Below are positions 52,176-53,013 of a stretch of 64,000 nucleotides of DNA, piece after piece (positions within the stretch are counted from its first letter, which is position 1; every line of letters begins with the position of its first letter). Source of the stretch: Lachnospiraceae bacterium (lineage in GTDB: Bacteria > Bacillota > Clostridia > Lachnospirales > Lachnospiraceae); contig JAAWEL010000089.1 in assembly GCA_022794255.1 (NCBI GenBank), forward strand, positions 24,757 to 88,756, written 5' to 3'. A program made the position numbers and the translations under genes. The notes beneath the pieces are model-generated. The model was not told where the DNA came from. It did not search any database and saw nothing but the letters and a program-made list of their open reading frames with translations.

Positions 52176-52216
52176 GAGTACAACACAATATGTAATTGTG
52201 TTGTACTTAAAATTAC
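52176..52216 (+). repeat. left inverted repeat of switch 2
   Basis: GAGTACAACACAATATGTAATTGTGTTGTACTTAAAATTAC. Confidence 0.9.
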
Positions 52217-52292
52217 ATATAAATTGAGTAAAATGCTGGTAATATAAGGATATGGCAGAGAATGCCAAATACGGGCACGGAGGTGCGTAAAT

Positions 52293-52871
52293 ATGCAAAA
52301 GACACAGCCAATCAGAAACACCAGGGATATTCTCAGACTGAAGCAATATTATCTGGACAGAAACCAGATACGCAATTATGCCCTGCTCACCTTGGGCATG
52401 AATACTTCCTTAAGAATCGGAGATCTGTTGCTCTTAAGGTGGGAAAATGTTTATGACTTTCACAGGAATTGCTATCACAAGCACTTAGAGGTTCTTGAAC
52501 AGAAAACAAGAAAGAATACCCGGATTGCCTTGAATAAAGAAGCGGTCTTATCTCTTCAGAATTTAAAAAATTCATTGGCTGTTGTATCTGGTGAGGATTA
52601 CCTTTTCCGGAGTCGTCAAGGCCAAAACCGTCCCATCAGCCGTTCACAGGCATTTCGCATCATAAAAAATGCTGCCAACAGTCTCCACATTACGGGAACC
52701 ATCAGCTGCCATTCCTTAAGAAAAACCTTCGGCTACCATGCGTGGAAAAATGGGATTCCTCCGGCCGTAATTATGGCAATTTACAATCACTCCTCTTTGG
52801 ATGTGACCAAACGCTACTTATCTATTGACCAGGATGACAAGGATAAAGTGTTTTTGGAGTTGAATCTATAA
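52293..52871 (+). CDS. small tyrosine recombinase (invertase) of switch 2
   Basis: 192 aa, close paralog of 24016-24594; SLRIGDLLLLRW, CHSLRKTFGYHAW, YNHSSLDVTKRYLSI. Confidence 0.93.
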   Translation: MQKTQPIRNTRDILRLKQYYLDRNQIRNYALLTLGMNTSLRIGDLLLLRWENVYDFHRNCYHKHLEVLEQKTRKNTRIALNKEAVLSLQNLKNSLAVVSGEDYLFRSRQGQNRPISRSQAFRIIKNAANSLHITGTISCHSLRKTFGYHAWKNGIPPAVIMAIYNHSSLDVTKRYLSIDQDDKDKVFLELNL

Positions 52872-52937
52872 AATAATTTCTTAAGAATTTTAAACCTGTT
52901 TTTCCAGAAAATCTTAACCCTTCCATCAGAAAAAAAC

Positions 52938-52966
52938 TTGCAATATAAATAAAAGAGTGCTATGAT
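52938..52966 (+). promoter_or_regulatory. switch 2 promoter, currently pointing away from operon B
   Basis: TTGCAA-17 bp-TATGAT; AAGAGTGCTATGATTACGAAGTAACT-like context conserved with switch 1. Confidence 0.75.
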
Positions 52967-52972
52967 TACGAA

Positions 52973-53013
52973 GTAACTTTGAGTGCAACATAATTACATA
53001 TTGTGTTACACTC
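52973..53013 (-). repeat. right inverted repeat of switch 2
   Basis: Reverse complement GAGTGTAACACAATATGTAATTATGTTGCACTCAAAGTTAC. Confidence 0.9.

What the first reader, a model, noticed from the sequence alone, without database searches (positions are those of the whole stretch)
52176..53013. Second independent switch with the same architecture upstream of capsule operon B, also OFF
Seen: 41-bp inverted repeats (35/41) enclose a paralogous 192-aa recombinase and a TTGCAA-17-TATGAT promoter pointing right, away from operon B. Element size, gene order and promoter spacing match element 1. Two independent switches give four expression states. The assembly shows the double-OFF state.
Basis: partly seen in the sequence, partly recalled or inferred. 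Interest (0 to 1): 0.88.

Follow-up and report, generated by a model that had tools for sequence, protein, structure and literature searches.

The report
Self-flipping promoter switch for capsule genes
A gut bacterium (family Lachnospiraceae) carries a small DNA cassette that encodes its own flipping enzyme and holds a promoter; flipping it should turn a large sugar-coat gene cluster on or off, and it is one of at least three such cassettes in a coat-switching system like the famous one of Bacteroides but built from different parts.

Summary
At 52176-53013 imperfect 41-bp inverted repeats (35/41) enclose a 192-aa tyrosine recombinase and a TTGCAA-17-TATGAT promoter that points away from a large surface-polysaccharide operon, the OFF orientation. 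The invertible-switch reading is well supported. Each arm is a palindromic recombinase site. Across 39 related elements the central 7 bp of the two arms almost never differ (1/273 positions, against 49/767 in the half-sites), as strand exchange requires. A third paralogous element just outside the window has both right-flank junctions in this assembly. Relatives are found in both orientations.

Corrections: there are at least three such switches, not two, plus a fourth operon of the same regulon with a fixed promoter. 'Independent' is not shown: the sites are near-identical, and congeners run several recombinase-less invertons with one distant recombinase. OFF dominates family-wide (23 of 25 capsule-linked elements). 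After flipping, the promoter would transcribe a covarying leader RNA and two LoaP-type antiterminator genes. That makes a Bacillota counterpart of the Bacteroides invertible-promoter/UpxY capsule system. The same cassette family, with sigma-D promoters, sits upstream of flagellin genes. New variant of a known kind; no transcription or inversion was measured for this element.

The parts
52176..52216 (.). left arm of element 2; palindromic recombinase site, core 52179-52205 TACAACACAAT-ATGTA-ATTGTGTTGTA
52293..52871 (+). 192-aa tyrosine recombinase; R41, H140-x-x-R143, H166, Y175 present, K71 in the expected hairpin (assigned by eye from the alignment to XerA)
52938..52966 (+). invertible sigma-A-type promoter TTGCAA-17-TATGAT with extended -10, pointing away from operon B (OFF)
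52973..53013 (.). right arm of element 2; core 52984-53010, same centre (ATGTA on the reverse strand) as the left arm, followed by a T-rich stretch
52099..52160 (-). conserved leader RNA hairpin of operon B (covarying stem, AAAGGGGTTATA tail); present 4 times in the genome
51204..51947 (-). LoaP-like antiterminator 1 (NusG family), first gene of operon B; lacks the second C-terminal KOW domain its paralogs have
50653..51219 (-). short LoaP-like protein 2, second gene of operon B
24789..50619 (-). rest of operon B: nucleotide-sugar epimerase (48610-50619), aminotransferases, initiating sugar transferase (46619-47326), glycosyltransferases, UDP-sugar dehydrogenase, Wzx-like flippase (33324-34562)
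23892..24773 (.). element 1: paralogous switch (arms 23892-23935 / 24730-24773, recombinase 24016-24594, promoter 24697-24725, OFF)
23755..23816 (-). leader RNA hairpin of operon A
22172..23612 (-). LoaP-like pair at the head of operon A (22836-23612 and 22172-22750)

Best explanation
Element 2 is a self-contained phase-variation switch. A small FimB/Xer-like tyrosine recombinase encoded inside the element recombines the two palindromic arms and inverts the 0.8-kb segment. In the assembled orientation the promoter next to the right arm fires rightward, away from operon B (OFF). After inversion the same promoter would lie about 275 nt upstream of the first gene of operon B and transcribe, in order, the arm hairpin, a conserved leader RNA hairpin, two LoaP-type antiterminator genes and then the roughly 27-kb surface-polysaccharide operon (ON). 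LoaP, recruited at the leader hairpin, would let RNA polymerase read through the long operon. Element 2 is one of at least three such switches; a fourth operon with the same leader has a fixed promoter and could be the default coat. Shown here by sequence: anatomy, site symmetry, constraint on the crossover centre, both orientations in relatives and both right-flank junctions for paralog E3, co-occurrence of recombinase and leader RNA, covariation of the leader. Inferred: recombination by this enzyme, promoter activity, OFF/ON effect on transcription, antitermination, default-coat role.
For: Arms, recombinase and promoter confirmed. Arm centres identical in 38 of 39 related elements; mismatches 1/273 in the central 7 bp against 49/767 in half-sites, Fisher p 4e-6; E2's four core mismatches all fall in half-sites. 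Paralog E3: contig positions 1-137 are the exact reverse complement of 915-1051, so the right flank is joined to both ends of the element, while another contig (C52) joins the left flank to the element's left end in the OFF form. Relatives: capsule-linked elements in OFF (e.g. L030, L032, L034) and ON (L027, L028) orientation. In-silico inversion puts the -10 275 nt before the LoaP1 ATG. Leader RNA: 7 of 12 pairs with compensatory changes in 9 sequences, 0 of 500 shuffles reach the covariation score; the model hits exactly four places in this genome. Recombinase and leader RNA occur in the same 5 of 24 congeneric genomes (p 2e-5). The recombinases look to be under purifying selection (E1 against E3: dN/dS 0.06; pairs with E2 have dN 0.14-0.17 with dS saturated).
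Against: No reads, transcripts or PCR for E2 itself; its ON form was not seen. E2 has the most diverged half-sites of the three window-genome elements (23/27 core identity) and its LoaP1 has lost a KOW domain, so this particular switch could be slow or locked. The E3 double junction could come from two strains in the metagenome rather than one flipping clone. The promoter is a consensus match only.
Confidence: 0.87

Rival explanations
1. Element 2 is a decayed, locked-OFF copy of the switch: arms too diverged to recombine efficiently, operon B silent except through rare trans-action of the E1 or E3 recombinase.
For: Arms 35/41 alike while E1 has 43/44 and E3 is perfect over its core; LoaP1 of operon B lacks the second KOW domain present in E1, E3 and C12 LoaP.
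Against: The 16-bp stretch over the crossover centre is identical in both arms; catalytic residues and full-length ORF intact; promoter box identical to the paralogs.
Confidence: 0.1
2. The 838-bp unit is a small mobile element (terminal inverted repeats plus one enzyme gene) that happens to lie upstream of the operon; the promoter-like box is incidental.
For: Size and layout resemble an insertion sequence; three paralogous copies in one genome.
Against: The enzyme is a tyrosine recombinase, not a DDE transposase; no target-site duplication; the relatives with readable neighbours lie mostly at the head of LoaP operons or csrA-flagellin genes; arms are recombinase palindromes with a conserved centre; relatives keep the same arms and promoter without any enzyme gene inside.
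Confidence: 0.02
3. The orientation called OFF is really ON: a promoter at the left end of the element fires into operon B, and the conserved right-end promoter serves something else.
For: A minus-strand match TTGGCA-16-TATATT (10/12) lies at 52268-52241, reading towards operon B; the assembled orientation is the same in 23 of 25 capsule-linked elements, which could be read as the working state.
Against: That match overlaps the recombinase's own 5' control region, which recurs upstream of solitary recombinases that have no inverton and is not conserved in E1 and E3. The recombinase-less invertons in relatives carry the same conserved right-end promoter next to the distal arm, pointing away from the leader.
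Confidence: 0.05

Closest known systems
Bacteroides fragilis invertible capsule promoters (Mpi recombinase, UpxY/UpxZ)
   Same: Several surface-polysaccharide operons behind invertible promoters; NusG-family antiterminator as first gene, a second small regulator gene next; one operon without inverton; in congeners of this genome one recombinase serves several short invertons in trans. (Bacteroides features from general knowledge; UpxY near invertons also in PMC11892184.)
   Different: Bacillota, not Bacteroidota; antiterminators are LoaP-like, not UpxY; recombinase is encoded inside each inverton here; sites are TGYAACA-type palindromes; leader carries a distinct conserved hairpin; the second gene is another LoaP-like protein, not UpxZ.
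Providencia stuartii self-contained inverton (PMC5903667)
   Same: About 0.84-kb invertible segment enclosing a recombinase ORF next to a surface-structure locus.
   Different: Fimbriae rather than polysaccharide; 14-bp imperfect repeats; unrelated phylum; no LoaP or leader RNA reported.
Inverton group 139 with invertase group 35 of Clostridia (PMC11892184)
   Same: 33 invertons (32 from Clostridia) linked to nearby tyrosine recombinases; an example in Clostridium sp. D5 has 26-bp repeats around about 205 bp, like the short invertons found here, and its orientation shifts in culture.
   Different: Identity with this family was not tested (sequences not at hand); no link to LoaP operons is stated in the passages read.
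LoaP and its dfn hairpin in Bacillus velezensis (PMC12691694)
   Same: LoaP-type NusG paralog acting on a long operon through a hairpin in the 5' leader.
   Different: There polyketide operons and a UNCG hairpin; here polysaccharide operons, a different hairpin, tandem LoaP genes and invertible promoters.
Eggerthella lenta capsule inversions (PMC13174815)
   Same: Capsule clusters, LoaP, reversible inversion.
   Different: Megabase inversions between 16-bp repeats, no adjacent recombinase.

Membership tests
Invertible-promoter phase-variation switch (inverton) | Inverted repeats flanking a promoter upstream of a target operon | tested here: met
Invertible-promoter phase-variation switch (inverton) | Crossover region identical in both arms | tested here: met
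   (E2 and 38 of 39 elements)
Invertible-promoter phase-variation switch (inverton) | Both orientations exist | tested here: inconclusive
   Met for paralog E3 and for the family; the ON form of E2 itself was not seen
Invertible-promoter phase-variation switch (inverton) | Orientation changes transcription of the operon | not testable with these tools
   needs RNA or reporter data
Tyrosine recombinase, FimB/FimE-like small invertase | Phage_integrase domain with R-K-H-R-H-Y residues and only the catalytic domain (about 190-200 aa) | tested here: met
   residues read by eye from the alignments
Tyrosine recombinase, FimB/FimE-like small invertase | Score above the NCBIfam cut-off of the tyrosine-type DNA invertase models (NF007370, NF007371) | tested here: not met
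   34 and 35.2 bits against cut-offs 221 and 222: works like one, not a member of that subfamily
Bacteroides Mpi/UpxY capsule system | UpxY-family antiterminator | tested here: not met
   NF033644 27-52 bits against cut-off 100; LoaP model NF033641 scores 105-127 against 125
LoaP antiterminator | NCBIfam NF033641 above cut-off (125 bits) | tested here: inconclusive
   operon C LoaP1 127.2 and C12 LoaP 125.4 pass; operon A 122.3 and operon B 105.3 just below; LoaP2 proteins 78-80
LoaP antiterminator | Acts through a hairpin in the operon leader | tested here: inconclusive
   a covarying leader hairpin precedes the LoaP1 genes examined here; binding not testable

The most novel reading that the evidence does not exclude
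The window belongs to a complete capsule-choice system in Lachnospiraceae. One LoaP operon with a fixed promoter is the default coat and several LoaP operons behind invertible promoters form a mostly silent reserve. The short second LoaP, found in 19 of 20 inverton operons that could be read and in 0 of 5 fixed-promoter ones, would silence the default coat or the other coats when its own operon is ON, as UpxZ does in Bacteroides. This would make one coat dominate without any physical coupling of the switches.
Probability: 0.35. Interest if true: 0.78.

Novelty: new variant of a known kind. Interest (0 to 1): 0.64.

Why it matters
Phase-variable capsules are textbook for Bacteroides, where they govern phage susceptibility and immune recognition; in the other major gut phylum this has hardly been described. 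The sequence here gives a testable layout: the recombination sites, the promoter, the antiterminator and its RNA element, and which operon should be the default. The same cassette family, with a flagellar-sigma promoter, sits in front of flagellin genes of many Lachnospiraceae, so one recombinase family may control two main surface antigens. The relation between cis-encoded (this species) and trans-encoded (its congeners) recombinases offers a direct test of how master-invertase systems arise.

Tried and rejected
Rfam search of the window: no family hits. The idea that the left-end match TTGGCA-16-TATATT drives operon B was rejected: it overlaps the recombinase's own 5' region, which solitary recombinases keep. 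A mobile-element reading was rejected: no target duplication, and enzyme-less relatives exist. The idea that spacer differences insulate all such switches holds for E1-E3 and L027/L028 but not in general: in G134 and G003 several invertons share the spacer ATAGA. Four same-genus loci first looked like decayed elements; they turned out to be solitary recombinases, with dispersed short invertons elsewhere in those genomes. First orientation of minus-strand RNA-model loci was wrong and was redone. An early count of the second LoaP (12 of 13, then 16 of 17 and 16 of 18) was revised to 19 of 20 after reading L147, L148 and L158. Literature searches found no paper linking LoaP capsule operons to invertons in Lachnospiraceae; the library lacks most subscription journals.

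Full report
OBSERVATION. The feature is present as described. Arms 52176-52216 and 52973-53013 are 35/41 complementary, far above chance (score 26; shuffles mean 9.4, maximum 13). They enclose a 192-aa tyrosine recombinase (52293-52871; Pfam Phage_integrase E 2.5e-25) and a promoter TTGCAA-17-TATGAT with an extended -10 at 52938-52966. Element 1 has the same order and spacing. Each arm is itself a palindrome with 11-bp half-sites around a 5-bp centre, the form of a tyrosine-recombinase site; the core motif occurs in the window only at these four arms.

A THIRD ELEMENT AND A MIXED JUNCTION. The window is positions 24757-88756 of contig C63. At the start of C63 lies a third element, E3 (109-944; recombinase 79% identical, promoter box identical). 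Positions 1-137 of that contig are the exact reverse complement of 915-1051, so the right flank of E3 is joined to both ends of the element. Contig C52 begins with 100 bp of E3's left end and continues into a third polysaccharide operon with its own LoaP pair. Both orientations of E3 were therefore in the sequenced DNA; two strains in the sample cannot be excluded.

CONSTRAINT ON THE CROSSOVER. In 39 related elements with both arms readable, the central 7 bp were identical between arms in 38; mismatches were 1/273 in the centre and 49/767 in the half-sites (p 4e-6). E2 follows this: four mismatches in the 27-bp core, none in the centre. The centres differ between E1 (TGGAA), E2 (ATGTA) and E3 (GAATG), which should stop recombination between elements. 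Half-sites are almost the same, so the three recombinases may well act on each other's elements.

ORIENTATION. OFF means that the promoter points away from the operon. Among capsule-linked elements 23 are OFF and 2 are ON (L027 and L028, from one MAG, both ON) (p 2e-5, not corrected for relatedness; the states of L156, L158 and L159 were read by eye, and L143 is split over two contigs). So switches of this family exist in both states, with a strong OFF bias in assemblies.

WHAT THE SWITCH CONTROLS. In-silico inversion places the -10 275 nt before the ATG of the first gene. The first two genes of operon B are LoaP-like antiterminators. The rest encodes a Wzx-like flippase, an initiating sugar transferase, glycosyltransferases, a UDP-sugar dehydrogenase and a large epimerase, so it is a surface-polysaccharide operon; whether a true capsule is inference. 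Between the arm and LoaP1 lies a conserved hairpin followed by AAAGGGGTTATA. Nine sequences give 7 of 12 pairs with compensatory changes and a covariation score reached by none of 500 shuffles. A covariance model finds it exactly four times in this genome: operons A, B and C, and a fourth LoaP operon on contig C12 with a fixed promoter. By analogy with Bacillus LoaP, which needs a leader hairpin for antitermination (PMC12691694), this is probably the recruitment element; binding is untested.

CIS AND TRANS VERSIONS. In the window's genus the recombinase and the leader RNA occur in the same 5 of 24 genomes. Four of these (G003, G005, G021, G022), and G134 of another genus, carry one recombinase with no inverton found around it, plus short invertons of roughly 210-310 bp with the same kind of arms and promoter in front of LoaP operons. 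The E1-E3 recombinases form a clade next to those solitary ones and apart from the other cis-encoded group (support 91/84 and 93/96). So recombinase-in-inverton and master-recombinase layouts appear to have interchanged, and the three cassettes here most likely arose by duplication within the lineage.

FIXED OPERON AND SECOND LoaP. Fixed-promoter LoaP operons (C12, L120, L125, L155, L157) carry one LoaP; inverton operons carry a second, short LoaP in 19 of 20 cases that could be read, the exception being L124 (hypergeometric p about 1e-4, by hand, related genomes not corrected for). This resembles the Bacteroides pairing of an antiterminator with a cross-locus inhibitor, but the role of the second LoaP is inference only.

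MECHANISM, STEP BY STEP. Recombinase expressed from its own promoter (inferred); synapsis of the arms and strand exchange in the shared centre (supported by site anatomy and the centre constraint); inversion (shown for paralog E3 at assembly level); promoter now drives arm hairpin, leader hairpin, LoaP1, LoaP2 and operon (sequence-based); LoaP-dependent read-through (inferred).

KNOWN OR NEW. Invertible capsule promoters, self-contained invertons and LoaP operons are each known. Their combination in Lachnospiraceae, with the leader element and the cis/trans alternation, was not found in the papers searched. PMC11892184 reports a Clostridia inverton group (139) with linked tyrosine recombinases and orientation shifts in culture that may include this family; that was not tested. 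Filed as a new variant of a known kind.

LIMITS.

Noticed in passing
L045-L089 and others (e.g. L058, L064, L070, L079): Relatives of the same recombinase sit in invertons directly upstream of csrA-flagellin gene pairs; a bit over half show a sigma-D-like promoter (TAAAG...CCGAT) inside the inverton, and among 20 leaders checked only one had even a weak match outside it. 34 of 35 are in the OFF orientation; L084 lies between two divergent flagellin genes, Hin-like.
   Followed up: partly
window 24697-24940: Element 1's right arm ends 15 bp from the 3' end of operon B's last gene (24789-25940, minus strand), so the OFF promoter of element 1 would read antisense into operon B: a possible physical coupling of the two operons.
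   Followed up: no
window 51204-51947: LoaP1 of operon B lacks the second C-terminal KOW domain that its paralogs in operons A, C and C12 have, so operon B may rely on another LoaP in trans.
   Followed up: partly
window 52236-52292: Recombinase 5' region: TGCTGGTAATAT box plus a small inverted repeat (GGCA..TGCC) that changes in a compensated way in relatives (GACA..TGTC, CGGC..GCCG, GGAA..TTCC), perhaps an RNA hairpin controlling the recombinase; not obvious in E1 and E3.
   Followed up: no
L122 and L126 (genome G137): LoaP/leader operons next to a different tyrosine recombinase (HALRHT motif) and a palindrome of the type GTCGTAGAGT..CTCTACGAC: possibly a second, unrelated switch type on the same regulon.
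   Followed up: no
G003 contigs C202 end / C135 start, G134 C5 end, G022 C308 start: Several contigs of relatives end in or at these invertons, as expected when both orientations or repeated copies are present in the sample.
   Followed up: no
G000:C12:21641-22685: Fourth LoaP operon of this genome, with a fixed promoter and a single LoaP: candidate default coat.
   Followed up: partly
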